From NCBI RefSeq assembly GCF_025369935.1, contig NZ_CP104467.1:6021001-6085000 (forward strand): a stretch of DNA of 64,000 nucleotides, in the 5' to 3' direction. The position numbers were made by a program, and so were the translations under genes. The DNA comes from Paenibacillus andongensis. Its GTDB lineage: Bacteria; Bacillota; Bacilli; Paenibacillales; NBRC-103111. The stretch's first letter is position 1; each line of letters starts with the position of its first letter. This document shows positions 9,033-31,600 of this stretch, in pieces. The notes beneath the pieces were generated by a model. The model saw only the letters and a program-made list of their open reading frames with translations. It was not told the origin of the DNA and did no database searches.

Positions 9033-9218
9033 ATCCATAGCTCCTAGCATGTGCTGTTCTGTTATCCTTGCCAAGGTACACCTCAATTCTCCTCTGGTAT
9101 ATCTTAATTATATGGATATACCGTAAGCCCTAGCAACCAGACAAGAACGAGAAATCTATGACAATCATGCGGAGTTATGATGTGGAGGCATGGTATGGTA
9201 TATACGATTACGATGGCA

Positions 9219-19280: not shown

Positions 19281-20588
19281 TCAACTAACCAAAAACCCAA
19301 CTTTTACATTTGAATCTTCTTTCATCCATGACATCGTTTGCCCTTTATGCAGATCCGACTTCATCGATTTCACCAGCTTCTCAATATTCACGCTTTGCTC
19401 ATAATGCCTATGAAGCGCAGCCGATACATACAATTCATTTAACTGGGCAAAAGTAAACCCTTCCGTTTGTTTCGCCGTTACTCGAATCAACTCTTCGCTC
19501 AGAAGCTTCCCTATCCCCTTTTGTTCTAAATAGATTTGTCTCAGCTCTAAATCTGGAAGCTTGATTTCATAAGCACGGTCGAATCTCCCTGCCCGGTTCA
19601 TAAGTGCCGGATCAATTTGCTCCGGATAATTCGTTGTCCCAATGAGGAAAATGCCTTCTTTGGAAGTCGCGCCATCCAAAATGTTCAAAAAGTACGACCT
19701 CGCCCGCTGAGGCATAGCGTCGATATCCTCAATAACAAGAATCATTGGCGCCATGTTCGCCGCAGCTTGAAACACCTCTTGAATAGATTCGCTACCCGTA
19801 TTCTCCGTTATTTGCCAATAAGCAACAGGAGCCTTCACACTGCCGGCAATCGATTTGACTAGCGTCGTTTTTCCATTGCCAGGTTTGCCGTAAAGCAAAA
19901 CACCTCTTTTGTAAGGAAGCTGATACTCTTTGAAAAAAGCACGATCCTCAGCAAAAAACTGATCGATAGAGCGATAAATATCAGTCTTCACTTCGTCTTT
20001 CATAATGACCTCCGAACGGTCGACCATGCGTGTAATAGGAGCTAATTCCTTCTCCATGCCATGAGGGCCATCCGTGAAAACAGTCACTTGTCTTCGGTCC
20101 AAATCCCTACGCCGCTGCCGGGCATGTTCTAAAAAACAGAGCAGACTCTCATCATCCACAGCAAAAACAAAATCCTCTTCTCCAACGCCATTCATACGAA
20201 AGATAGGCACTCTAGCTAATGCGATTCCCCAGGATGGGTAAGCGAAAACGTTATTGCGCAGTGTAGGAAACGTCCGATAGGCCGATACTTCACTTTCCGC
20301 ATCCATTCCGAATGCACGTGATTCCATATGGTCGAAGATTCTAGTGACGAAATGCACATCATCACTGCCGGTTTTCACATCCTGCTCCAACAGCTCCCAA
20401 TACTCTTCTTTCCTGTCATCACTCAGATAAGCTTCAAAATGCTGTTCATATTTATCACTAAGCACATTTTGAATGCGTTCCAGCACATAGGCATAGTCCC
20501 TATATGCTGAAAGCGAGCGGCCTTCCGACCTATTCGAAAATGTTACTACTGCTGATTCCTCCAAACTTACTCCCTGAAAATAATTCAT
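19281..20588 (-). CDS. AAA ATPase linked to RtcB
   Basis: A 435-residue protein with one AAA module: Walker A GKPGNGKTT (234-242), Walker B LVIEDID (284-290), sensor-1 N320 and arginine-finger region AGRFDR (333-338). The first 200 residues are a family-specific N-terminal domain without a motif recognisable by eye. The AAA core resembles BCS1/proteasome-type unfoldases. Its ATG overlaps the rtcB1 stop by 4 nt (ATGA), so it is translated with the ligase. It may remodel an RNP or protein during RNA repair, but no function is established from sequence. Confidence 0.85.
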   Translation of the reverse strand: MNYFQGVSLEESAVVTFSNRSEGRSLSAYRDYAYVLERIQNVLSDKYEQHFEAYLSDDRKEEYWELLEQDVKTGSDDVHFVTRIFDHMESRAFGMDAESEVSAYRTFPTLRNNVFAYPSWGIALARVPIFRMNGVGEEDFVFAVDDESLLCFLEHARQRRRDLDRRQVTVFTDGPHGMEKELAPITRMVDRSEVIMKDEVKTDIYRSIDQFFAEDRAFFKEYQLPYKRGVLLYGKPGNGKTTLVKSIAGSVKAPVAYWQITENTGSESIQEVFQAAANMAPMILVIEDIDAMPQRARSYFLNILDGATSKEGIFLIGTTNYPEQIDPALMNRAGRFDRAYEIKLPDLELRQIYLEQKGIGKLLSEELIRVTAKQTEGFTFAQLNELYVSAALHRHYEQSVNIEKLVKSMKSDLHKGQTMSWMKEDSNVKVGFLVS

Positions 20589-22006
20589 TTAGCACCTTTT
20601 ACTGCCGCCATGGGCTTACATTTAGCTACAACCTCAGCCAATCCCGCTCCGACAACACTTTCAATAATTTGATCTACATCTTTATAAGCTTGAGGTGATT
20701 CATCTAGAATTGACTCTAACGACCTTTGGTTAACAACAATTTCCTCATCCGTACCTACTCGCATGGAAGAGGCAAATTCATTTAAAGTTATCAATCTTTT
20801 CGTCGCGCTGCGCGAGCGAATTCGTCCTGCACCATGACAGATGGAGTGAAAGTTGGCTTTGCCGCCTGGGGCTCCTACCATGATGTAGGATGCTGTCCCC
20901 ATTGAACCGGGAATCAACGCTGGGTGACCTGTATTTAAATAAGGCTGCGGATTGCTTGAATGGCCTGCCGGAAGCGACCTCGTCGCCCCTTTGCGATGCA
21001 CAAAATAGGACTCCCCCTCATGCTTTTCCTCCCAAGCATAGTTATGCATGAGATCATAAAGCGTCGTCATTTCAAACTTCGACCCAAACACATCCTTACC
21101 AGCCTCACGAATGGCATAGGCAATGAGATGGCGGTTTACAACCGCATAATTGAGCGCTGAATACATCAAATTTACATAAGTCTGAGCTGTCGGATGATCT
21201 AATGGCGCAAATAGCAGCTTTGGATCCGCTGTTCCTAATCCGTTCATCCGCATGACCTTCATCATATCATTGCTGCAATATTGACTCACAGAGCCACCCC
21301 ATGCACGCGAGCCCGAATGAATCATAATGACCACTTGACCATCAAATAGTCCCCATGCTTCAGCCACCTCACGGTTCTCTTCCGCAATCTCTATGGATTG
21401 AATCTCCGCAAAATGGTTCCCATTCCCAAGCGTCCCCAGCTGGCGATGTGACCGATGCCATACGTTGTCCGGAAATCGATTCAATGCATTTTCATCCAAA
21501 GTAAATTTGCTGCTTTCTACATGTGTAAGCGAAGTCGCCTTGCGCGGCGTATAGCCGTCGGGAATATACTTCTTTGAAAGTCCGTGCAGCCCTTTGGTGA
21601 CGATGTGTTCCAATCGGATGTCCGAGAAATGTCCACGTACGTGGTCTTCCACGGGTAAGTACTTCTCGATCGTCTTCACCAGCTTGCGGCGCAGCTTCAC
21701 ATCCTTCAGGTCAGCCTTGTGCAAATTCGTCATATGCACCTTCATGCCACAGCCAATATCGCTACCGACAATGGACGGTGATACATATCCGTCATGCGTA
21801 TTCCATACTGCTGTCGTGCCTATGCAAGTACCAACACCAACGTGTACGTCAGGTGTATAGCTCATATACACTTGATTTGGAATCTGCAAATTGTTGTTAG
21901 CCATTTGAAAAACTTGATAATCCAAAGCTTTAAATAATTCAGGTCCTGCGTATACATGCACAACTCCCGATGGGAGCTGGACCTGTTGAATATAGTTTTC
22001 TTTCAT
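20585..22006 (-). CDS. rtcB: RtcB-type RNA ligase, copy 1
   Basis: A 473-residue RtcB ligase, which joins RNA 2',3'-cyclic phosphate or 3'-phosphate ends to 5'-OH ends using GTP and manganese. All active-site motifs are present: SDIGCGM (D83, C86), LGNGNHFAEI, MIHSGSRAWG and CHGAGRIRSR, the last carrying the His expected to be guanylylated. It sits between a nucleotidyltransferase gene (upstream, 15 nt gap to the start) and the AAA ATPase gene (4-nt overlap). A second RtcB paralogue lies at 24736-26154. No RtcA or archease gene was seen in the window. Confidence 0.95.
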   Translation of the reverse strand: MKENYIQQVQLPSGVVHVYAGPELFKALDYQVFQMANNNLQIPNQVYMSYTPDVHVGVGTCIGTTAVWNTHDGYVSPSIVGSDIGCGMKVHMTNLHKADLKDVKLRRKLVKTIEKYLPVEDHVRGHFSDIRLEHIVTKGLHGLSKKYIPDGYTPRKATSLTHVESSKFTLDENALNRFPDNVWHRSHRQLGTLGNGNHFAEIQSIEIAEENREVAEAWGLFDGQVVIMIHSGSRAWGGSVSQYCSNDMMKVMRMNGLGTADPKLLFAPLDHPTAQTYVNLMYSALNYAVVNRHLIAYAIREAGKDVFGSKFEMTTLYDLMHNYAWEEKHEGESYFVHRKGATRSLPAGHSSNPQPYLNTGHPALIPGSMGTASYIMVGAPGGKANFHSICHGAGRIRSRSATKRLITLNEFASSMRVGTDEEIVVNQRSLESILDESPQAYKDVDQIIESVVGAGLAEVVAKCKPMAAVKGAK

Positions 22007-22021
22007 ACGTTTTGTTCCTCT

Positions 22022-22807
22022 CTACGAACCCCAAACCTCCCTCAGCGCATCTCGGAATAAAGCATCTAATGCTGCTTCTTGCTTTTCTCCAGAGACCGCG
22101 ATATGTTTGGCAGTTTCTTCAAAATAAGCGATTTGTCGATCTAAATAGTCGTTGATTACTGTAATTTTCGGCTCTAAGTCGAACTCGACGCCAGCCTTCT
22201 TACGCGTCAACAACGTATATACTTCTTGTTTTAATTTCGATTCCGGCAGCATTTGCTCCACCAGATCCTCAAAATCCATCGGCGGCATGCTGCCGCGCTC
22301 TTCAATCCACTGGCAAGCTAGTATTGGCCGCAACACATAGAAATACTTTTTGATTTTCACATACTCACCCTGCAAATATTCCCGAAAGTTCCCTTTGGCC
22401 ATATGCAAATAGTGGTACATACTGGACCGTGGAGAAAAAGTTAACGGTGAAAGCTCGCGGATTTTCTCCGTTACACCGTATTGCTCCAAATATTGAATCG
22501 GAGACTGCAGCCATTCGAGTAAGGGCGGGTTCGATTTCCGAAACAAGTTCAGTGCCTTTTTCAAATCCCAACCGTTAATGTCGAGCTGATCGCTGATCGG
22601 ACGCTCAATAACATCTCGTTTCTCGAATAGAGATAAGTACCAGTCTACGGGTCTTACATAGATGAACCTCACATCATAATCACTGTCCTTCGAAGGAAAT
22701 CCCCAGGCTCTACTACCCGATTCACAAGCATAGAGGATCCGAACGCCTTCCTCTTGTTCAATTCGTTTAAGCTCACTATCTATTTTTCTCGTATCAAAAA
22801 ATGTCAT
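22022..22807 (-). CDS. COG3541-type nucleotidyltransferase
   Basis: About 261 residues. The N-terminal DNA-polymerase-beta-like nucleotidyltransferase signature is clear: GSRAWGFPSKDSDYDVRF, with the two catalytic Asp residues in DSDYD. The remainder is helical and matches the YcgL/COG3541 pattern in general layout. The ATG at 22807 was chosen because AGGGTGAG lies just upstream; the open frame extends to 22861 through a terminator hairpin, which is unlikely to be coding. It is the first gene of the nucleotidyltransferase-rtcB1-AAA operon. A role in adding nucleotides to damaged RNA ends before ligation is an inference from context. Confidence 0.85.
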   Translation of the reverse strand: MTFFDTRKIDSELKRIEQEEGVRILYACESGSRAWGFPSKDSDYDVRFIYVRPVDWYLSLFEKRDVIERPISDQLDINGWDLKKALNLFRKSNPPLLEWLQSPIQYLEQYGVTEKIRELSPLTFSPRSSMYHYLHMAKGNFREYLQGEYVKIKKYFYVLRPILACQWIEERGSMPPMDFEDLVEQMLPESKLKQEVYTLLTRKKAGVEFDLEPKITVINDYLDRQIAYFEETAKHIAVSGEKQEAALDALFRDALREVWGS

Positions 22808-22843
22808 GGGACTCACCCTTTCTTCGTATGATGTGGACGCAAA

Positions 22844-22874
22844 AAAGCCATAGACCAACATCGTCTACGGCTTT
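22844..22874 (-). terminator. Intrinsic terminator in the leader of the rtcB1 operon
   Basis: On the minus strand a 12-bp stem AAAGCCGTAGAC/GTCTATGGCTTT (one G-U pair) with a 7-nt loop is followed by a T run. It lies only about 37 nt before the nucleotidyltransferase ATG, downstream of a 29-codon ORF. No promoter fits between hairpin and gene, so operon expression seems to need read-through or antitermination. Confidence 0.8.
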
Positions 22875-22912
22875 ATCATGTCAAATTTAAACTAGGCCTA
22901 CTCAAGGAGTAC

Positions 22913-23002
22913 CTACGTATTCGTCATAAGTCCGGTTGAGACCGATGATATGCTTTGCTTTTCAATTGTCAGGTTATTCATAGAAATTTGATTGCGAATC
23001 AT
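22913..23002 (-). CDS. 29-residue peptide, candidate leader peptide
   Basis: A short ORF that starts with ATG at 23002, preceded by an excellent AAGGAGG at 7-nt spacing, and ends with TAG at 22913. It encodes a polar, Ser/Thr/Asn-rich peptide beginning MIRNQISMNNL and ending STGLMTNT; no family was recognised. It lies 26 nt behind the predicted transcription start of a strong promoter and about 39 nt ahead of a terminator. The arrangement suggests a leader peptide controlling the rtcB1 operon, or a free-standing micropeptide gene. Confidence 0.6.
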   Translation of the reverse strand: MIRNQISMNNLTIEKQSISSVSTGLMTNT

Positions 23003-23034
23003 TTCGTCGGCCTCCTTTCCATTCATTTACAAAC

Positions 23035-23064
23035 ATCATACGAGTCAAACCTAAGAACTGTCAA
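23035..23064 (-). promoter_or_regulatory. Strong sigma-A promoter of the rtcB1 leader
   Basis: A perfect -35 TTGACA (23059-23064) and -10 TATGAT (23035-23040) are separated by 18 nt on the minus strand. It is one of the best promoters in the window and drives the 29-codon ORF, then the attenuator-like hairpin and the nucleotidyltransferase-rtcB1-AAA genes. Confidence 0.8.
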
Positions 23065-23118
23065 TCTGTTGTGACGGGAAAGATTAATTATAATGATCGT
23101 GCCCATTAATATAATTTA

Positions 23119-24234
23119 TCATTGCTTGGAAATGTTTTTATCTCCAACAAGCGAGTTCAGCTGCTCTAGTAGGTTACCTCCACCGTTGAAAGAAATCGTC
23201 CCGATTTTCTCGCATATCTTCTCCAGAAACTCAAGCTCCTTCAAACGAAACAGGGTTTGGTTCTCATCCATAAGCTTAGCCGTATTGAGCAAGCTTCGTG
23301 TAGAAGCTGTCTCCTCACGCCGCGTAATGAGATTGGCTTGAGCCTTCTTCTCAGCCAACAAGACCGTATTCAGAATATCCTTAATATCACCCGGCAGAAT
23401 AATATCTTTCACACCTGCGGATAAGAACTGCACGCCATAATCTAGACTTTTCTCATTCAAGCGCGACAAAACGTAAACGGTGATTTCCTGTTTCATTTTC
23501 AACAAATCATCTAACTTCAATGTACCTACATACTCACGCAAAATAAGCTGCAGCTGAATGTACATCTGCTCTTCGAACGACTTGATTTCAAGAGCTCTAA
23601 GCGGATTCAAAATGCGATATTGGCACACAAAGTTGAGTCGCAGTGTTACCTTATCCTCCGTCATCATTTCTTGCCCCGTCATATCCATTTGCTGTTGGCG
23701 CAGATCGACGGTTTTCACCGCGACTCCTATAGGTCCCTTCCAGAAATAATATTTTCCGGGTGCCAGCTCCTTTTGCATAACATGGTTATAAAACAAAGCT
23801 CCACTTTCGTGACTAGCCACATCAAACGTCTGATAGTAACCAATTAGCTTTGGAATGATAGCTGGATCAATTTCCTTTGGTAATTCAGGATTACGTATAT
23901 CCGCACGAAGATAAGTGTGCTTTTTCAAAACATTCCAAAAAGCATAGTTCCCGGCTATCAACACCCCAACAAATTTGCCGTCTTCATAATGCAGCACATA
24001 TTCATTGTCTTGGACAAGCACGATATCCAGCTCTTGTATGAGTATTTCGTCATGCATAAACAGCAGAAGGTCTTTTCCTTTTACGCTAAAAGGCTGCGTA
24101 ATATTAAGAATAATAACGTTATCATCCGAAAATGGAGACAACCGATATGTTCCAGGCCGTAAGCATTTATAGTAACTGCCTTTACGAAAAAGCAGTCCTC
24201 GTTCGTCATTTTGTATCGTCACTTTTTTAAACAT
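23119..24234 (-). CDS. Slipin / SPFH (band 7) domain protein
   Basis: About 371 residues from the ATG at 24234, which has AAGGAGG 6 nt upstream. Residues about 110-330 match an SPFH/band-7 domain (VKTVDLRQQQMDMTGQEMMT through LAEKKAQANLITRREE), followed by a helical tail. No clear N-terminal membrane helix is seen, unlike membrane slipins, so membrane attachment is uncertain. It lies downstream of rtcB2 and the tRNA-like RNA on the same strand. Slipin genes are known companions of RtcB in bacterial RNA-repair neighbourhoods. Its molecular role there is not established. Confidence 0.85.
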   Translation of the reverse strand: MFKKVTIQNDERGLLFRKGSYYKCLRPGTYRLSPFSDDNVIILNITQPFSVKGKDLLLFMHDEILIQELDIVLVQDNEYVLHYEDGKFVGVLIAGNYAFWNVLKKHTYLRADIRNPELPKEIDPAIIPKLIGYYQTFDVASHESGALFYNHVMQKELAPGKYYFWKGPIGVAVKTVDLRQQQMDMTGQEMMTEDKVTLRLNFVCQYRILNPLRALEIKSFEEQMYIQLQLILREYVGTLKLDDLLKMKQEITVYVLSRLNEKSLDYGVQFLSAGVKDIILPGDIKDILNTVLLAEKKAQANLITRREETASTRSLLNTAKLMDENQTLFRLKELEFLEKICEKIGTISFNGGGNLLEQLNSLVGDKNISKQ

Positions 24235-24735
24235 GTTATACCTCCTTGAATAATGGATCACATATTTGGAGTCTTCCTGCAATTAGGGCGGAATTCTGCT
24301 TAAGAGTACAAGAAATGAATAACAGCCATTTGAAAATTAGTTGGAGTTGTCGAGTTTCACAATCAAACCGTTTATCGTCCAATTCTTAACAAACTTTTGT
24401 AAACATTCGTGTAATCGGTATCTGCAGACTGCATAGCCTTAGTGCAGTGTGCAATTTCAAAGCCACAGAAGACTCCAGTACGCGATCAATAGGGGATGTT
24501 TTTCGCTCGATTGAAGTCGAGTGCTCTACCACTGAGCTAATCGTTCCACACGATAGGGGATTCGAACCCCTGCACCAGGGGAATGCACGCCGAAATGAAC
24601 ATTACAGTATACAAACACATAGGGATGTGTGAGCACTGCCGGACTATTTGAAATCCTAGCCTTAGTAAAGTCATCCGTACATACATCCAAATTTATGATT
24701 ATACGTCCATTGACGTCTATCATCACTAGATTTTC
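24235..24735 (-). other. Long rtcB2-slipin intergenic region with structured RNA
   Basis: This 501-nt gap is too long for a simple operon junction. On the minus strand it holds a 6-bp hairpin (ACACAT/ATGTGT, near 24613-24630), a -10-like TATACT (24606-24611), the permuted tRNA-like core (24506-24571), and a second hairpin with arms ACTGCA/TGCAGT (near 24428-24448). The ribosome binding site of the slipin gene follows. No conserved ORF was recognised. Confidence 0.65.
24506..24571 (-). ncRNA. Circularly permuted tRNA-like RNA (YrlA-like candidate)
   Basis: Read on the minus strand, four tRNA-type arms follow each other without gaps. The T arm (24555-24571) has a 5-bp stem and canonical loop TTCGAAT. 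A closed acceptor hairpin (24540-24554) pairs ATCGT with ACGAT around GTGGA. TA follows, then a D arm (24523-24537) with stem GCTC/GAGC and loop AGTGGTA, and after one A an anticodon-like arm (24506-24521) with stem CTCGA/TCGAG and loop CTTCAA. The order is a circular permutation of tRNA, with the acceptor ends fused and no CCA. Bacterial Y RNAs of the YrlA type carry a tRNA-mimic module and often lie near rtcB. The true transcript ends and any outer Ro-binding stem could not be identified by eye. Confidence 0.75.
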
Positions 24736-26154
24736 TTAAACACCTTTAATCGCAACCATCGGCTTACAAGTCGCCACTACATCTGCTAGCGACGCGCCCA
24801 CAACACTATCAATAATCTGATCCACATCCTTATAGGCTTGTGGACATTCATCAAGAATCGTTTGCAGGGAACGATGATTAACCAGAATCTCATCTTCCGT
24901 ACCAACTTTCATCGATTGCGCGAATTGATCGACGGTGACAAGCTCTTTCGTTGCCTTCCGTGATCTTGCCCTCCCCGCACCGTGACAGATGGAGTAGAAG
25001 TTTTTCAGCCCTTCCTCTTTCCCCACCATAATGTAAGATGAGGTCCCCATAGAACCCGGGATTAATGCCGGATGCCCAGTTTCTTTATAGGCAGCTGTAT
25101 TCAGAAAATGACCTGGCGGCAGCGCTCTTGTCGCTCCCTTTCGATGAACGAGCATGGATTGATTGCGGTGAAATTCCTTTAATGCATAGTTATGCATAAG
25201 GTCATAGAGTACCGGCATTTCAGTATCCCCGCCAAACACTTCTTTAAAAGCTTCACGAACACCGAAAGCAATCATATGTCTATTACTTACTGCAAAATTC
25301 AGTGCGGAATACATCAGATTTAAGTAGGTTTGCCCTTCATGACTTGCAATTGGCGCATATAAGAGATTCCGATCCGGATTTACGATACCCCAACTGTTCA
25401 TTACTTCTCTGAACACTTTGGTGAATTCTTGCCCCAACATAGCTCCCCATGCACGAGAACCAGAGTGAATCATGACGACAACCTGACCGTCGAACAAGCC
25501 CCATTTTGCAGCTAAATCCTTATGTGCCTCTGCCACTTCTAGATACTGAATCTCTATAAAATGGTTCCCGCCGCCAAGCGTCCCAAGCTGTCCATGGGCA
25601 TACTTACGGATTTTTGCAGGCAAATTCTCAAGGTAGGCGTGGTCGAATTTGAACGAAGACTCTTCAACATGTGTAAGCCACTGTTCATTCGGAACATATT
25701 TCTCAGGAAGTCCTTTTAATCCGTTTTGAACGACATCCATGATATCGATATCCGAGTAATTCGTATTCGTACGCTCATTCGTTGGAACATATTTCTCGAT
25801 CGCTTTGATCAGCGCTCTACGAATTCCCTTGTCTTGAATATCACTTTTGTGCAGGGATGTCATATGCACGCGCATGCCACAGCCGATATCTACGCCAACA
25901 ATTGAAGGGGAAACGAACCCGTCTTTCATGCTCCAGACTGCCGTTGTCCCAATACAAGTACCAATACCAACATGGGCATCCGGGGTGTAGCTCATATGCA
26001 CACTTCGCGGAATCCGCAGGTTATTATCTGCCATTTCAAATACTTTGTTTTCAAAGGATTGGAACACATCCGTATTAGCAAAAACATGAAGATTACCATG
26101 CTCTAATGTCATTTCGTAATGATTACCGCCGTGTATCTTTGTTTTCATATCCAT
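24736..26154 (-). CDS. rtcB: RtcB-type RNA ligase, copy 2
   Basis: About 472 residues from the ATG at 26154 (GGAGG, 8-nt spacing); the longer open frame to 26214 lacks a signal. All RtcB motifs are intact: VDIGCGMRVH, LGGGNHFIEI, MIHSGSRAWG and CHGAGRARSR. It is clearly paralogous to copy 1, sharing long identical stretches such as the LVHRKGATRALPPGH region and the C-terminal YKDVDQIIDSVVGA region. It is divergent from a WYL regulator gene and followed by the tRNA-like RNA and slipin gene. Why two active ligases sit 3 kb apart is not evident. Confidence 0.95.
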   Translation of the reverse strand: MDMKTKIHGGNHYEMTLEHGNLHVFANTDVFQSFENKVFEMADNNLRIPRSVHMSYTPDAHVGIGTCIGTTAVWSMKDGFVSPSIVGVDIGCGMRVHMTSLHKSDIQDKGIRRALIKAIEKYVPTNERTNTNYSDIDIMDVVQNGLKGLPEKYVPNEQWLTHVEESSFKFDHAYLENLPAKIRKYAHGQLGTLGGGNHFIEIQYLEVAEAHKDLAAKWGLFDGQVVVMIHSGSRAWGAMLGQEFTKVFREVMNSWGIVNPDRNLLYAPIASHEGQTYLNLMYSALNFAVSNRHMIAFGVREAFKEVFGGDTEMPVLYDLMHNYALKEFHRNQSMLVHRKGATRALPPGHFLNTAAYKETGHPALIPGSMGTSSYIMVGKEEGLKNFYSICHGAGRARSRKATKELVTVDQFAQSMKVGTEDEILVNHRSLQTILDECPQAYKDVDQIIDSVVGASLADVVATCKPMVAIKGV

Positions 26155-26268
26155 TTGGTTAACCTCCGTTTTTCTTCTAAAGCTATCTTCGCTTATTTGA
26201 GATGGAGTGAACATGGTGAAAGTATGACGACAGGTGAAAAGTTTTCCATTTTCTCCATATCTCTCCCC

Positions 26269-26277
26269 TGTTACAAT
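26269..26277 (+). promoter_or_regulatory. Candidate extended -10 promoter for WYL genes
   Basis: TGTTACAAT gives a TGn-extended -10 (TACAAT at 26272-26277) 34 nt ahead of the first WYL gene; no convincing -35 is seen. It lies in the 157-nt gap shared with the divergent rtcB2 gene, where a WYL-protein operator would be expected. Confidence 0.45.
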
Positions 26278-26311
26278 AGTTAAAGGTTGAATTGAAGAGC
26301 GAGGGATTCAA

Positions 26312-27637
26312 ATGGCTAAGGAAAGCTTTGATAAAGAAATTCAATTTCTGCGTATGCTTGTCCTCACTAGCGGGGCATATAGTCGTCAGCAATTTGCGGA
26401 GAGGCTGGGTATCTCGGTCCATACTTTTGATAAAACATTACGTCGGTTAAAAGAAATCGTAGCTTCGATGTATCAACAGGCGCCAGATATGCAAAAGAAA
26501 GAACTCGCCGAGATGCTTCGTTACAGCTATTTCGATTCAACTGATCCTATGCTGCTGTTCTTATTTCGAGCAAAGTCATTGAAAGAATCCGAAAGTCAGC
26601 GAATATCTACGCTTCTTGCTACTATGAATGTGCAGCCCCTTACCGCTATTGAACTCCTGGACGTATGTTGTAAAGATATCCAAACGGATTCCTCTCTTCC
26701 TGACGAGAAGACGATTCGAAACGATTTAAAATATCTGGAAGAAGTCGGTGTCATCAAAAAAGAACCCGGACCACGTCCCTATCGTTATCGCATACATAAT
26801 GATTTAATCCAAGAGCTTACACTTGATGAGCTAATTGACCTTTATGATTTTATCGATGTGATGTCGAATACGCAGGTACCGTCCGTTCAAGGCTATTTAC
26901 TGCGAGATGGGCTTAAAAAGCATATGAATCGGACCTCATCGGAACCAGCATCCATAGAACCATTCCTTTATAAATATCATTATCATTCACGTATTTTGGA
27001 TGAAGCGCATCTGTCCATCCTTCTATCAGCTATTCAAAATCGCTGCAAGATCGATTTCTTATACTTTTCGCCCAAAAATTCGCAATCCTATTCTTCGAAA
27101 AATACAAATCCCTTATTTGAACGTGAAATGGAAGGGAAGCTCCAAAAAACATTACCGCTCAAAATTGTCTACGATCACCAATATGGACGATGGTACCTTC
27201 TCGCTTATGATTCACGGCATGGCATCAAGAAATATCGGATGGAAGGCATGACTCAGATTGAGCATGGTGAGCGTGTCGACTCCATCCTTTTTGATGAGAA
27301 GAAAAGTGTATTGGAAGAGAGTATAAAGCATAGTTGGGTTCTTGATACCGGACGATCGGTTACCTTGAAAGTAAGATTTTTTAACCCAGGTGATACGGGG
27401 CCGAATTTCATTAAAGATCGCGTCCTGCTTCAGGGGCAGTGGGGAGAGATTACGGAAGAGACGACAGATTGGTTTATTTTCGAGATAGAGGTTAATGGAA
27501 CTACGGAAATTAAGCCTTGGATTAGAAGCTTCGGATCCAGCTGCGAGGTGCTTGAACCCCTCTATTTTCGGAATGAGATGATATCGGAGTGGAAGGAGCT
27601 TGAGGCGTATTATGAACCTGTTCGAGAAAATATTTAA
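26312..27637 (+). CDS. WYL-domain transcriptional regulator with N-terminal HTH
   Basis: A 441-residue regulator. Residues about 15-50 form a helix-turn-helix (YSRQQFAERLGISVHTFDKT). A second winged-helix-like region follows (about 110-150), and the WYL domain is centred on GRWYLLAYDSRHG (about 290-305), with a C-terminal WCX-like segment. WYL domains bind nucleic acid or nucleotide ligands and occur as regulators of phage defence and DNA/RNA-damage systems. Divergent from rtcB2 and overlapping a second WYL gene, it is the probable sensor/regulator of the RNA-repair island. Confidence 0.88.
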   Translation: MAKESFDKEIQFLRMLVLTSGAYSRQQFAERLGISVHTFDKTLRRLKEIVASMYQQAPDMQKKELAEMLRYSYFDSTDPMLLFLFRAKSLKESESQRISTLLATMNVQPLTAIELLDVCCKDIQTDSSLPDEKTIRNDLKYLEEVGVIKKEPGPRPYRYRIHNDLIQELTLDELIDLYDFIDVMSNTQVPSVQGYLLRDGLKKHMNRTSSEPASIEPFLYKYHYHSRILDEAHLSILLSAIQNRCKIDFLYFSPKNSQSYSSKNTNPLFEREMEGKLQKTLPLKIVYDHQYGRWYLLAYDSRHGIKKYRMEGMTQIEHGERVDSILFDEKKSVLEESIKHSWVLDTGRSVTLKVRFFNPGDTGPNFIKDRVLLQGQWGEITEETTDWFIFEIEVNGTTEIKPWIRSFGSSCEVLEPLYFRNEMISEWKELEAYYEPVRENI

Positions 27638-28412
27638 CTATCAAATGATCACGCGGCTGGAGGATTCGGGCACTTTCATGATCACCTCACAGGAAAGGTC
27701 ATGGCTGAAGACCATGCTTAACCACCCCTCAGCGTCCTATGCCTTCACCCCAGTAACACTAGAAAAGCTTGAATCTGTGCTAGTTGATGAGAACACCTTG
27801 GATTTTGCTGAAGCCTTTGTTGAAAAAGCTCGAAGTAAGGAGAAGCAGGTCTATCACCCGATGCTTCGCGCATTACGTCGATTCATTATAAGACAAACTG
27901 CTATCCAACTTACTTACAAAGTGAAGGATGATCGGACTTTTACCAATGAAATGGCTTATCCCTATAAGCTTGAGTATTCCTTGGTAAAAAAAGAATGGTA
28001 CTTGCTCTGGTATCACATCAGACATCGGGCGATGATGAGTTCAAAGCTCGACAAGATTGAATCGATCAAAGAATTGACCATTTCTGCTGAGCGAGTCGCC
28101 CAAATTGGCTTAGACATAGAGAAACTGCTGCAAAAACGTCAGATTCATGCAACGATTGAGGTTATAAAGGAATACAATCGGGAGTTATCGCGGATTTTAT
28201 ATGCCTTCTCTTGCTTTGAGAAGCAAGTTGATTATGATGAAATTCGAGAAACGTATACAATCCGATTAACTTTTCTAAATAATGAAGCCGAATATGTCCT
28301 TAGCAAACTTCGTTTCTTGGGCAAGCGGGTGCGTGTCACCCAAGGCGATCATTTGCAAAGGAGAATGCTTGAATCGGCCAAAAAAGCTTTGGCTAGGTAT
28401 GAGGAAACATAG
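27612..28412 (+). CDS. WYL-domain protein without N-terminal HTH
   Basis: About 266 residues from the ATG at 27612 (GAGG, 6-nt spacing), overlapping the preceding WYL gene by 26 nt. The WYL signature is KEWYLLWYHIRH, followed by a WCX-like C-terminal region. The first 80 residues show no confident DNA-binding motif, so it may act as a heteromeric partner of the larger WYL protein. It ends one base from the convergent symporter gene. Confidence 0.82.
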   Translation: MNLFEKIFNYQMITRLEDSGTFMITSQERSWLKTMLNHPSASYAFTPVTLEKLESVLVDENTLDFAEAFVEKARSKEKQVYHPMLRALRRFIIRQTAIQLTYKVKDDRTFTNEMAYPYKLEYSLVKKEWYLLWYHIRHRAMMSSKLDKIESIKELTISAERVAQIGLDIEKLLQKRQIHATIEVIKEYNRELSRILYAFSCFEKQVDYDEIRETYTIRLTFLNNEAEYVLSKLRFLGKRVRVTQGDHLQRRMLESAKKALARYEET

Positions 28413-28413
28413 A

Positions 28414-29940
28414 TTATTCACTCAATTCCACCCGTGCCAATTGGGATTGAACCATCATCTTATCGTAATGATCCGGATCATTCTTCTTCGAAGTTAGCAA
28501 GGTACCCAGGATCCCTCCAAGGAATCCAAGCGGAATAGAAACAATCCCTGGATTATTCAAAGGGAACAGCGCTTCACAACGAATCCAGCCTGACGATGGA
28601 TCCATCACATTGGGACTTAGAATCACGAATAAGATCGAAGCGATAAGTCCCGTTAACAGTCCGATTATGGCACCAGTTGAATTGAATCTGCGCCAGTACA
28701 GCGTAAGCACAAGTAAGGGCAAGTTCGCAGAAGCAGCTACTGCAAAAGCCAGAGAGACAAGGAATGCCACGTTTAACCGCTGGGCACCTAAAGCAAGTAT
28801 GATAGACAATACACCGACCACTACTGCGGAACATTTGGCAACCAGCATTTGCTGGGCCTCCGTGGCTTTTCCTTTTTTCAATATACTGCTGTAAATATCA
28901 TGGGAAAAGGCGGACGTAGCCGCCAGCACCAACCCCGAGACTACAGCCAGAATCGTGGCAAAAGCAACCGCTGAAATGAACGCCATCCAAAACTCGCCGC
29001 CAAGTGCCTTGGCAAGTAAAGGCGCCGCCATATTGTCCTCGCCTAATAATAATGTTCGGTCAACGAAGGCCGCTGCACCAAAACCAAGAAAGATGGTCAT
29101 CACATAAAAAGCGCCGATTAGCCAAGTGGCATGAATGACGGAAGACCTGACGGTCTGCGCCTCTTTGACTGTATAGAATCTGGAGATGATGTGCGGCAGT
29201 CCTGCCGTCCCCAATACCAAAGCCAGATTAAAGGAAAGCGTATCCAAGGGTCCCGAAAATAAATTCCCAGGCTGCACAAACTTCTCCTTTAACGGAGTGG
29301 CCTGCGAAACATACATATACAGATCATAAATATTCCAATGAAATCGGGCAAGTACCATCAGGCTGATCATAAAAGTACTGCACACGAGTAGAATAGCCTT
29401 GATAATTTGCACCCAAGAAGTAGCAAGCATACCACCGAAAGCCACATAAATGGTCATCAAGCTGCCCACTACAAGGATGGCAGAGGAATACTGCACCCCA
29501 AGCAGTAAATGAATGATCCCCCCTGCGCCAACCAATTGAGCAATCATATAAAAAATCGTGATCAAGATATTGTTAATCGCCATACAACCTCTAAGATTCT
29601 TCTCTTGAAACCGCACTGCGATCGCATCTGCCATCGTAAAACGTCCTAGATTATGCAGTGGTTCTGCGATGATATAGAGAACAACCACGTAGGATGCTAG
29701 GAAGCCTATAGAATAGAAAAAACCATCAAAGCCATAAATGGCAATTGTCCCCGTAATACCAAGAAAAGAAGCGGCACTCATATAATCACCGGAAATGGCC
29801 AGCCCGTTTTGAAAGCCAGTGAGTCGATTTCCAGCCACATAAAAGTCATTCGTGTTCATTGTACGTTTAGCAGAATGGTACGTAATAACTAGCGTCCCAA
29901 TCACTACGGCCACGAAAAAGACAAACGCGAAAAAATTCAT
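28414..29940 (-). CDS. Sodium:solute symporter, acetate/monocarboxylate type
   Basis: A 508-residue membrane protein of the SSS family (ActP/YwcA-like) with about 13 transmembrane helices and the conserved GDYMSAASFLGI, LVGAGGIIHLL and LVLGTAGLPHIISRFYTV motifs. It is close to the symporter encoded just upstream (30080-31600) but lacks its own DUF485 partner. A terminator between the two genes suggests separate or reduced transcription. The likely substrate is acetate or another short monocarboxylate; this is inferred from the family. Confidence 0.9.
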   Translation of the reverse strand: MNFFAFVFFVAVVIGTLVITYHSAKRTMNTNDFYVAGNRLTGFQNGLAISGDYMSAASFLGITGTIAIYGFDGFFYSIGFLASYVVVLYIIAEPLHNLGRFTMADAIAVRFQEKNLRGCMAINNILITIFYMIAQLVGAGGIIHLLLGVQYSSAILVVGSLMTIYVAFGGMLATSWVQIIKAILLVCSTFMISLMVLARFHWNIYDLYMYVSQATPLKEKFVQPGNLFSGPLDTLSFNLALVLGTAGLPHIISRFYTVKEAQTVRSSVIHATWLIGAFYVMTIFLGFGAAAFVDRTLLLGEDNMAAPLLAKALGGEFWMAFISAVAFATILAVVSGLVLAATSAFSHDIYSSILKKGKATEAQQMLVAKCSAVVVGVLSIILALGAQRLNVAFLVSLAFAVAASANLPLLVLTLYWRRFNSTGAIIGLLTGLIASILFVILSPNVMDPSSGWIRCEALFPLNNPGIVSIPLGFLGGILGTLLTSKKNDPDHYDKMMVQSQLARVELSE

Positions 29941-30079: not shown

Positions 30080-31600
30080 TTACATACCCGTATTTGCTTT
30101 TACATTAATTTCCGTATATTTCACATCGTCTCTTTGTGTGGAAAGCATCGTTCCAACAAAAGCTCCAAGGAACCCAAGCGGTATGGAGATAATGCCAGGA
30201 TTAGCCAAATTAATAAGCGGATTGCCCACCAGAATCGCCTTCCCTGCCTCTCCCCAAATATTTGGGCCCACGGCAACAAGTAGGATACAGCTTAATAGTC
30301 CACTTAACATACCGACAATCGCACCAGTCGTGTTAAACCTTTTCCAGTAGACAGTGAAGAGAATGACTGGCAAATTAGCACTTGCCGCAACAGCGAAGGC
30401 AATAGATACTAGGAAAGCAACATTGAGCTTTTGAGCAAACAGTGCAAAGATGATCGAGAGCACGGCTACACCAATCGAAGCGAAACGGGCTACTTTCAAT
30501 TCTTCCTTATCCGTCGCTTTGCCTTTACGAACGATTTGTCCGTAAAAATCATGGGAGAAGGCCGAAGCGGCAGAAAGCACTAATCCGGTAACGACCGCTA
30601 ATATCGTAGCAAAAGCAACCGCTGAAATAAAGGCAAACAAGAAGTCCCCGCCTAGTGCTTTGGCTAACAGCGGCGCAGCCATGTTCCCACCTTTATCAAT
30701 CGCTGTGATATCCTTAGCGCCAACAAATGCTGCAGCTCCAAAGCCAAGGAATAAGGTCATGACATAGAAAATACCGATAACCCATGTTGCCGAGACAACA
30801 GAACTTCTTGCTGTAGCCGCATTTTTAACTGTATAGAAACGAGTAAGAATATGCGGCAATCCAGCAGTTCCGAGCACCAAGGCAAGGTTAAGCGAGAGCG
30901 TTTCAACCGGAATCTTATATTTGTTACCCGGATTTAAAAACGCCTCTTTCAATGGAGTCGCTGTTTTCAGTTGGGTAAACATTTCGGAAATACTGAAATT
31001 AAATTTCGCTAGAACGATAAGTGATAGAATCAGCGTCCCACCCATCAGAAGGACCGCTTTGGTAATTTGCACCCAACTCGTGGCTCTCATTCCGCCAAAT
31101 ACCACATAGATGGTCATCAAGATACCCACGATTAATACAGAGGTATAGTAATTAAATCCGAATAGAAGTTTGATCAAAGCACCCGCTCCTACAAGTTGCG
31201 CGATCATATAGAAGATGGAAATAGTGATCGTGTTTAATGCGGCAACCCCACGAACATTCTGGTTAGCAAATCGCGCTGCGATCATATCTGCCATCGTATA
31301 TTTCCCCAGATTTCGAAGCGGTTCCGCTACTAAATAGAGGACGACAAGATAGGCAACTAGAAAACCTAGACTGTAGAAGAATCCATCAAATCCAGTCAAG
31401 GCAATCGTCCCTGCGATTCCCAAGAAGGAGGCTGCCGACATATAATCCCCGGCAATCGCAAGCCCGTTCTGCCACCCCGTTAAACCACCGCCGCCCGTAT
31501 AAAATTCATTCGAGCTATCCGTTTTCTTAGCTGCATAATACGTAATAATCATCGTTAACAAAATAATACAAAGAAATAGAATGACGGCAGTTGGACTCAT
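30080..31600 (-). CDS. Sodium:solute symporter, acetate/monocarboxylate type
   Basis: A 506-residue SSS-family symporter with about 13 transmembrane helices and the same signature motifs as its neighbour (GDYMSAASFLGIAG, QLVGAGALIKLL, TAGLPHILTRFYTV). Its start overlaps the DUF485 gene by 4 nt. A DUF485 protein plus SSS symporter is the known arrangement for ActP- and MctC-type monocarboxylate uptake. The LytS/LytT-like pair upstream probably controls it. Confidence 0.92.
   Translation of the reverse strand: MSPTAVILFLCIILLTMIITYYAAKKTDSSNEFYTGGGGLTGWQNGLAIAGDYMSAASFLGIAGTIALTGFDGFFYSLGFLVAYLVVLYLVAEPLRNLGKYTMADMIAARFANQNVRGVAALNTITISIFYMIAQLVGAGALIKLLFGFNYYTSVLIVGILMTIYVVFGGMRATSWVQITKAVLLMGGTLILSLIVLAKFNFSISEMFTQLKTATPLKEAFLNPGNKYKIPVETLSLNLALVLGTAGLPHILTRFYTVKNAATARSSVVSATWVIGIFYVMTLFLGFGAAAFVGAKDITAIDKGGNMAAPLLAKALGGDFLFAFISAVAFATILAVVTGLVLSAASAFSHDFYGQIVRKGKATDKEELKVARFASIGVAVLSIIFALFAQKLNVAFLVSIAFAVAASANLPVILFTVYWKRFNTTGAIVGMLSGLLSCILLVAVGPNIWGEAGKAILVGNPLINLANPGIISIPLGFLGAFVGTMLSTQRDDVKYTEINVKANTGM

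What the first reader, a model, noticed from the sequence alone, without database searches (positions are those of the whole stretch)
19281..28412. RNA-repair island with two RtcB ligases and WYL control
Within 9 kb lie two complete RtcB ligases, a nucleotidyltransferase, an AAA ATPase, a slipin, two WYL-domain regulators, a structured RNA and a leader peptide. Both RtcB copies keep every active-site motif, so neither is decaying. RtcB-slipin-WYL neighbourhoods are known in RNA-damage repair, but the duplicated ligase with one copy tied to nucleotidyltransferase/AAA and the other to tRNA-like RNA/slipin suggests two branches (end modification plus ligation, and RNA capture plus ligation) under shared WYL control.
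Basis: partly seen in the sequence, partly recalled or inferred. Interest (0 to 1): 0.82.

Follow-up and report, generated by a model that had tools for sequence, protein, structure and literature searches.

The report
Two-ligase RNA-repair locus, tRNA-mimic RNA
A bacterium carries a gene cluster with two different RNA-sealing enzymes, one of them next to a small RNA that imitates a rearranged transfer RNA; such repair kits are known, but here two separately controlled modules are joined and the RNA-protein part is swapped for another in close relatives.

Summary
The window has two intact RtcB ligases (58% identical, old paralogues), RlaP, an AAA ATPase, an SPFH/slipin, an HTH-WYL and a WYL protein, a structured RNA and a short leader ORF. 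The genome has no other RtcB and no Ro60/TROVE.

The RNA is real: about 300 nt with a circularly permuted tRNA-like core; 28 of 49 pairs show compensatory changes. The core is found upstream of this slipin type in 75 of 80 loci (33 of 38 not used for training).

Relatives show two portable modules: WYL pair + promoter block + RtcB_B + [RNA1-slipin], and leader + RlaP + RtcB_A + AAA. They are joined in 18 of 24 genomes with RtcB_B. In 5 of these 18, DUF6847 with another conserved RNA stands in place of slipin-RNA1; 7 have neither.

Shared WYL control is not supported: the WYL-side promoter block occurs once in the genome, before RtcB_B. The other half has its own promoter, leader and terminator, also where WYL genes are absent.

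RtcB-RlaP-Band-7-tRNA-like systems were described by Burroughs and Aravind 2016 (recalled; not held). Verdict: new variant of a known kind.

The parts
19281..20588 (-). AAA+ ATPase (FtsH/PAN-like AAA module), last gene of the RlaP-RtcB_A half
   Evidence: Pfam AAA 90 bits; follows RtcB_A in 15 of 18 joined loci
20585..22006 (-). RtcB_A, RNA 3'-P/5'-OH ligase, 473 aa
   Evidence: PF01139 379 bits; alignment to 4dwr; own clade, 58% identical to RtcB_B
22022..22807 (-). RlaP nucleotidyltransferase, start corrected from 22861 to 22807 (261 aa)
   Evidence: PF10127 343.6 bits; ATG 22861 lies in the terminator
22841..22874 (-). intrinsic terminator hairpin AAAGCCGTAGAC-loop-GTCTATGGCTTTTTT between leader ORF and RlaP
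   Evidence: read; conserved in the leader alignment of 23 loci
22913..23002 (-). leader ORF, 29 codons (MIRNQIS...), inside a leader whose Shine-Dalgarno 23014-23007 can pair with 22945-22938
   Evidence: the pairing is predicted by RNAalifold on 23 loci
23035..23064 (-). sigma-70-like promoter of the RlaP half: TTGACA, 18 bp, TATGAT
   Evidence: read; conserved in the alignment
23119..24234 (-). soluble SPFH/slipin-type protein with three tandem SPFH1-like beta units (371 aa)
   Evidence: PF01145 87 bits; stomatin profile match; no hydrophobic segment; models
24410..24709 (-). RNA1, about 300 nt structured RNA
   Evidence: 36-sequence alignment A4, 28 of 49 pairs with compensatory changes, 0 of 500 shuffles reach it
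24505..24573 (-). permuted tRNA-like core of RNA1: T-arm, acceptor hairpin, D-arm, anticodon-like arm
   Evidence: R1 82.1 bits, only such place in the genome
24736..26154 (-). RtcB_B, RNA ligase, start corrected from 26214 to 26154 (472 aa)
   Evidence: PF01139 413 bits; alignment to 4dwr; start:
26207..26230 (-). conserved WYL-side promoter/operator block TCGTCATACTTTCACCATGTTCAC
   Evidence: 49 of 53 WYL1-divergent stretches; unique in the genome without mismatch
26312..27637 (+). WYL1: HTH-WYL-WCX regulator
   Evidence: Pfam HTH_11, WYL, WCX
27600..28412 (+). WYL2: WYL-domain protein without detected HTH, overlapping WYL1
   Evidence: Pfam WYL; pair kept in 16 of 18 joined loci

Best explanation
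The locus is a composite stress-induced RNA-repair island built from two separately regulated modules. Module 1: the WYL pair and the promoter block drive RtcB_B, RNA1 and a soluble slipin. The slipin is expected to form an SPFH oligomer that holds RNA1; the tRNA-mimic part of RNA1 is expected to engage tRNA-binding partners or cleaved tRNA so that RtcB_B seals 2',3'-cyclic-phosphate/5'-OH breaks. Module 2: a terminator-type leader controls RlaP, RtcB_A and an AAA ATPase; RlaP is expected to restore lost nucleotides before RtcB_A ligates, the AAA to remodel the complex. Shown: gene content, intact motifs, RNA structure by covariation, slipin-RNA1 linkage, module independence, separate control elements. 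Inferred: RNP formation, tRNA as substrate, order of events, inducing signal.
For: Families and motifs. RNA1 fold: core 95.7% of cells paired against 89.4% in shuffles, 52 cells changed on both sides against 18; whole RNA 170 cells against 57.4, 28 pairs against 14.9, 0 of 500 shuffles. Linkage: R1 hit upstream of the slipin in 75 of 80 loci at E up to 0.1, 61 with 56 bits or more; 42 of the 80 trained the model, so 33 of 38 are independent. It holds in a genome of another class-level group (one more of 398 sampled; slipin 66% identical next to it). No TROVE in the genome, so this Y-RNA-like RNA has no Ro60 partner. Modules. Separate control. The link of RlaP with RNA ligases and its predicted role is stated in PMC7824862 (passages). 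A translation-stress repressor controlling rtcB, a slipin and a tRNA operon in Anabaena (PMC10272220, passages) and induction of rtcB by cleaved tRNA in Salmonella (PMC7790460, passages) are parallels.
Against: No expression, binding or ligation data. RNA1 is absent from 12 of 18 joined loci, so it is not needed for the two-ligase arrangement. RtcB_A occurs without RlaP and AAA in some loci. RNA1 also occurs with slipin and no RtcB within 7 kb (many of the 80 loci), so the slipin-RNA1 pair may have another job. The anticodon-like loop varies and the acceptor hairpin is 5-6 bp, so it is not a functional tRNA.
Confidence: 0.6

Rival explanations
1. RNA1 is a decoy or sensor: invading anticodon nucleases cut its tRNA-like anticodon arm instead of real tRNA, and the cut RNA or its repair by RtcB_B signals damage.
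For: The commonest 7-nt loops are CTTTCAA (13) and CTTTTAA (12) between an almost invariant CTCGA/TCGAG stem; CTTTTAA equals the tRNA-Lys(UUU) loop (recalled). The passages of PMC7790460 propose YrlA as a possible inhibitor of the nuclease.
Against: 18 different loop sequences, one changed in length in the window itself (CTTCAA), and 17 of 74 cores fail this stem pattern. The same passages say YrlA fragments were not detected.
Confidence: 0.25
2. RtcB_B matures RNA1 itself: the permuted tRNA-like RNA is processed and re-ligated or circularised, as in permuted tRNA genes of algae and archaea.
For: The order T-arm, acceptor, D-arm, anticodon arm is that of a circular permutation; RtcB_B lies directly upstream in part of the loci.
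Against: The acceptor strands are joined by a short loop without CCA; 5-6 instead of 7 pairs; conserved flanks on both sides form one larger fold; slipin-RNA1 occurs without RtcB within 7 kb.
Confidence: 0.1
3. The island is a chance stacking of two unrelated repair operons at an integration-prone site, with no functional tie between the ligases.
For: Both halves occur alone; PIN-domain genes, DUF6847-RNA2 and slipin-RNA1 come and go between RtcB_B and RlaP.
Against: Joined in 18 of 24 genomes with RtcB_B, same strand and order each time; the two clades keep 70-97% and 75-100% identity within themselves.
Confidence: 0.25

Closest known systems
RtcB-RlaP and SPFH/Band-7 + tRNA-like RNA repair systems (Burroughs and Aravind 2016, NAR; not held, abstract recalled)
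   Same: RtcB ligase, RlaP nucleotidyltransferase, Band-7 protein and a tRNA-like noncoding RNA as its cognate RNA.
   Different: Two RtcB clades in one island; RNA1 shown to be about 300 nt with a permuted core; slipin-RNA1 replaced by DUF6847-RNA2 at the same place in relatives. I could not check whether the 2016 paper already shows these.
rsr-yrlBA-rtcBA operon with Ro60 and YrlA Y RNA (Salmonella, PMC7790460, passages read)
   Same: RtcB beside a noncoding RNA with a tRNA-like module; YrlA is the best Rfam match of RNA1.
   Different: No Ro60/TROVE in this genome, no RtcR/sigma-54 type control seen, RNA1 far larger than the YrlA model (114 positions) and matching only positions 30-81.
TrcR regulon of Anabaena PCC 7120 (PMC10272220, passages read)
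   Same: One repressor controls rtcB, a slipin gene and a tRNA operon under translational stress.
   Different: WYL is not mentioned in that text (0 occurrences); genes are not in one cluster.
Eukaryotic vault (MVP, TROVE protein TEP1, vault RNA; PMC13174449, passages read)
   Same: SPFH-type protein with several beta units before the SPFH domain plus a small RNA; MVP is the only family among the rows shown that aligns along residues 5-311 of the slipin model (Z 7.2, rmsd 7.0, 216 residues).
   Different: Below the level at which such a match is trusted; with the N-terminal part alone, single units match SPFH1 of erlin, prohibitin and HflK (Z 5-6, 44 residues) better than MVP (Z 3-4).

Membership tests
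RtcB RNA ligase | PF01139 domain with complete active-site motifs | tested here: met
   379 and 413 bits; aligned motifs
RtcB RNA ligase | joins 3'-P or 2',3'-cyclic-P to 5'-OH RNA ends | not testable with these tools
   needs biochemistry
RlaP nucleotidyltransferase | PF10127 match and RNA-ligase neighbourhood | tested here: met
   343.6 bits; next to RtcB_A in 16 of 18 joined loci
YrlA Y RNA (RF02553) | reaches the Rfam gathering score | tested here: not met
   32 bits against 69, partial match
Y RNA | Ro60/TROVE partner in the genome | tested here: not met
   PF05731 not found in the genome; the control genome Deinobacterium rings
tRNA gene | recognised by ARAGORN and at or above the Rfam tRNA score | tested here: not met
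   ARAGORN 0 in the window; 28.6 bits against 29
slipin / SPFH | Band_7 domain and stomatin-like fold | tested here: met
   PF01145; stomatin profile E 2e-19; Z about 10 to stomatin SPFH
slipin / SPFH | N-terminal membrane anchor | tested here: not met
   no 19-residue window at 1.6 or more on the Kyte-Doolittle scale; a symporter control has 115
vault protein MVP | MVP-type repeats before an SPFH-like shoulder | tested here: inconclusive
WYL-controlled operon | conserved site between WYL gene and target | tested here: met
   for the RtcB_B side: 49 of 53
WYL-controlled operon | same site at the RlaP-RtcB_A promoter | tested here: not met
Burroughs-Aravind Band-7 + tRNA-like RNA system | identity with the RNA described in 2016 | not testable with these tools
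   paper not held

The most novel reading that the evidence does not exclude
RtcB_B works with interchangeable RNA-protein cassettes. Slipin-RNA1 would be a soluble, vault-like SPFH particle whose tandem SPFH1 units replace the membrane anchor and which carries a 300-nt RNA with a permuted tRNA mimic that brings damaged tRNA to the ligase; DUF6847-RNA2 would be an unrelated cassette doing the same job in the same slot.
Probability: 0.25. Interest if true: 0.85.

Novelty: new variant of a known kind. Interest (0 to 1): 0.58.

Why it matters
It gives a testable Ro60-free counterpart of the Ro60/Y-RNA/RtcB systems: a scaffold protein, a tRNA-mimic RNA and a ligase that travel together. If the slipin-RNA1 and DUF6847-RNA2 cassettes are functionally equivalent, the question of what Y-RNA-like RNAs do for RNA repair becomes open to direct genetics in a culturable genus, and two RNA folds without an Rfam entry of their own gain a context.

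Tried and rejected
Ordinary tRNA gene: ARAGORN finds none in the window. Known Rfam family: none at the gathering score in the window. Ro60 partner: absent. Recent duplication of RtcB: rejected, both clades are monophyletic and about 58% apart (support 0.94 for A, 0.68 for B; a quick FastTree, 46 sequences of those extracted, shorter ones dropped). Shared operator: a matrix scan of 18 leader promoters gave scores at shuffle level apart from L087. Leader peptide as the selected product: doubtful because of frame changes. Membrane tether by the slipin: not supported. Vault homology: looked for with two models; the full-length model is weak (mean pLDDT 62), the N-terminal model good (89), the match to MVP stays inconclusive. 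RNA2 in the window: none, DUF6847 is not found in this genome. T-arm in RNA2: first thought to be a constant part, but it is missing in most distant copies, so 'tRNA mimic' fits RNA1 better than RNA2. Literature: 10 searches found no held paper on slipin with tRNA-like RNA or on DUF6847; the key 2016 paper and the 2020 Ro60 review are not held. One-genome double counting: L102, L103, L106, L107, L110, L118, L120, L135 and L142 are genomes also mapped from unnamed handles, so the 53 stretches are fewer genomes. Rows dropped: the core alignment used 43 of 74 recovered cores; typical ones were chosen, and the derived subfamily with a longer acceptor (L136, L140, L147, L154, L161, L165, L166, L170, L176, L177) was left out; A4 used 36 of 38 chosen (L133, L181 lacked the 3' end pattern); leader counts are 22 of 28 (by a motif that L084 meets without a convincing leader) and 23 of 24.
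Full report
What was checked. NCBIfam gives no equivalog above its cut-off for the seven proteins and PADLOC names no defence system beyond generic WYL and AAA relatives. Both RtcB are full length and keep the active-site motifs, and the 7.64 Mb genome holds no third copy. The genome belongs to the same genus as Paenibacillus sp. V4I3: G053, a same-genus genome, has a contig of the same length and position of match as that record.

RNA1. Rfam sees only fragments (YrlA 32 bits, tRNA 28.6 bits). Comparison of 80 loci with a related slipin shows a conserved RNA upstream of the slipin gene. Its core runs T-arm, acceptor hairpin, D-arm, anticodon-like arm, a circularly permuted tRNA order. On 43 sequences 95.7% of cells are paired (89.4% in shuffles) and 52 cells changed on both sides (18.0 in shuffles), 0 of 500 shuffles reaching either; slid structures fall to 32-48%. 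The D-arm stem is lost in part of the set (15-19 gaps per pair) while the GG of its loop stays. The core lies in a larger fold of about 300 nt: on 36 sequences, 49 pairs, 95.0% paired (86.7% shuffled), 28 pairs with compensatory change (14.9 shuffled), 170 cells (57.4 shuffled), 0 of 500 shuffles. The structure was derived from the same alignment, so the slid control leans in its favour. The single-sequence folding energy of the window copy is not remarkable (z -1.84). A helix pairs the D-loop GGUA with a 3' GGAUACCG; it hardly varies, so it is not proven by covariation.

RNA1 and slipin. Model R1 finds RNA1 in 75 of 80 slipin loci at E up to 0.1; 61 of them reach 56 bits or more; L124, L141, L171, L174 and L178 are missed. 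42 of the 80 trained the model; 33 of the other 38 are hit. In the own genome only the window copy stands out (82.1 bits, next 50.2). In 392 genomes of the order, 141 have a match at E up to 1e-9, but matches of about 54-59 bits are mostly what tandem tRNA genes give, so the true number is lower. In 398 genomes across the phylum, the own and one other match at 1e-11; the other also has the slipin next to it. This slipin lacks a membrane anchor. Its N-terminal 180 residues are predicted with good confidence as three beta units like the SPFH1 part of SPFH proteins; the full model also aligns with the major vault protein, at a level that is not decisive.

Modules. RtcB falls into three classes in 104 genomes of the family (78 have RtcB, 85 have RlaP). 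I mapped 41 loci including the window. RtcB_B and RtcB_A are joined, same strand and order, in 18 of 24 genomes with RtcB_B (in G054 RtcB_A is a fragment); 6 have RtcB_B elsewhere, and 13 mapped loci have RtcB_A without an intact adjacent RtcB_B. Of the 18: WYL pair 16, RlaP 16, AAA 15, slipin 6, DUF6847 5, neither 7. RNA1 is present in all 6 with slipin and RNA2 in all 5 with DUF6847. A and B clades are each monophyletic, 58% apart in the window. So the two-ligase island is a conserved but modular composite, not a duplication in place.

Control. A block TCGTAATACTTTC[GA]CCATGTTCG lies between WYL1 and whichever repair gene comes first, RtcB_B or RNA1-slipin (49 of 53 stretches). In the genome it occurs once. 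The RlaP half has TTGACA-18-TATGAT, a Shine-Dalgarno sequence that can pair with a downstream element (GAGGCCGA with TCGGTCTC; TCGGCCTC in L093, L096, L097 turns a G-U into a G-C), a short ORF and a terminator. The leader also precedes RtcB_A directly where RlaP is absent (L078, L079, L090, L091, L093, L097). This argues for separate control, with possible read-through from the RtcB_B promoter; no expression data exist here.

Mechanism. From the families: RtcB seals ends left by metal-independent nucleases, and RlaP is predicted to restore lost nucleotides (PMC7824862, passages). Cleaved tRNA induces the Salmonella rtc operon (PMC7790460, passages), and a repressor of rtcB, a slipin and a tRNA operon responds to translational stress in Anabaena (PMC10272220, passages). 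By analogy I propose that module 1 forms a slipin-RNA1 particle serving RtcB_B, and module 2 an RlaP-RtcB_A-AAA repair line for ends that lost nucleotides. The RNP and substrate steps are inference. RNA1 as decoy is the main rival.

Known or new. RlaP-ligase links and prfH/RtcB units are in print. Band-7 with a tRNA-like RNA is, as I recall, in Burroughs and Aravind 2016, which is not held. New to me, and not found in 10 searches of the held library (listed under Tried and rejected), are the size and fold of RNA1, the exchange of slipin-RNA1 for DUF6847-RNA2 beside RtcB_B, and the DUF6847-RNA2 pair itself, which holds in 30 of 30 fetched DUF6847 loci (about half of these are the genomes that trained the profile) and 20 of 20 mapped again with longer flanks (largely overlapping with the former).

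Noticed in passing
L062, L063, L064, L067, L070, L083, L108-L117 (part), L139, L224-L273: DUF6847 (DIP1984, PF20935) genes are followed directly by a conserved RNA of about 220 nt (RNA2) in 30 of 30 fetched loci; no Rfam match at gathering score. Its ends appear complementary by eye; some copies carry a T-arm-like hairpin, most distant ones do not. Mostly without RtcB within about 6 kb, but beside RtcB_B, beside short RtcB with WYL (L270, L271) or beside RNA1-slipin in others.
   Followed up: partly
L125:2111-4184 and L278:2679-4752 (same genome, seen twice), L122:9453-10085: Clusters of 19 and 7 tRNA genes lie next to slipin-RNA1; L125/L278 also has a short RtcB. It resembles the stress-induced tRNA operon of Anabaena.
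   Followed up: no
L071:8783-9244 and the same place in L062 (fragment), L064, L070, L072: A PIN-domain gene with a small partner ORF sits antisense between RtcB_B (or RNA2) and RlaP in five relatives, possibly a toxin-antitoxin pair inside the repair island.
   Followed up: partly
L083:8820-8893 and 9124-9197 (-): Two tRNA-His genes lie upstream of RtcB_B in a relative without WYL neighbours.
   Followed up: no
L101 (G055): A same-genus genome keeps RlaP with the leader but has no RtcB.
   Followed up: no
window 28414-29940 and 30080-31600: Two adjacent, similar genes of 508 and 506 aa that read like sodium/solute symporters (by eye; the first is strongly hydrophobic) lie directly beyond WYL2.
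   Followed up: no
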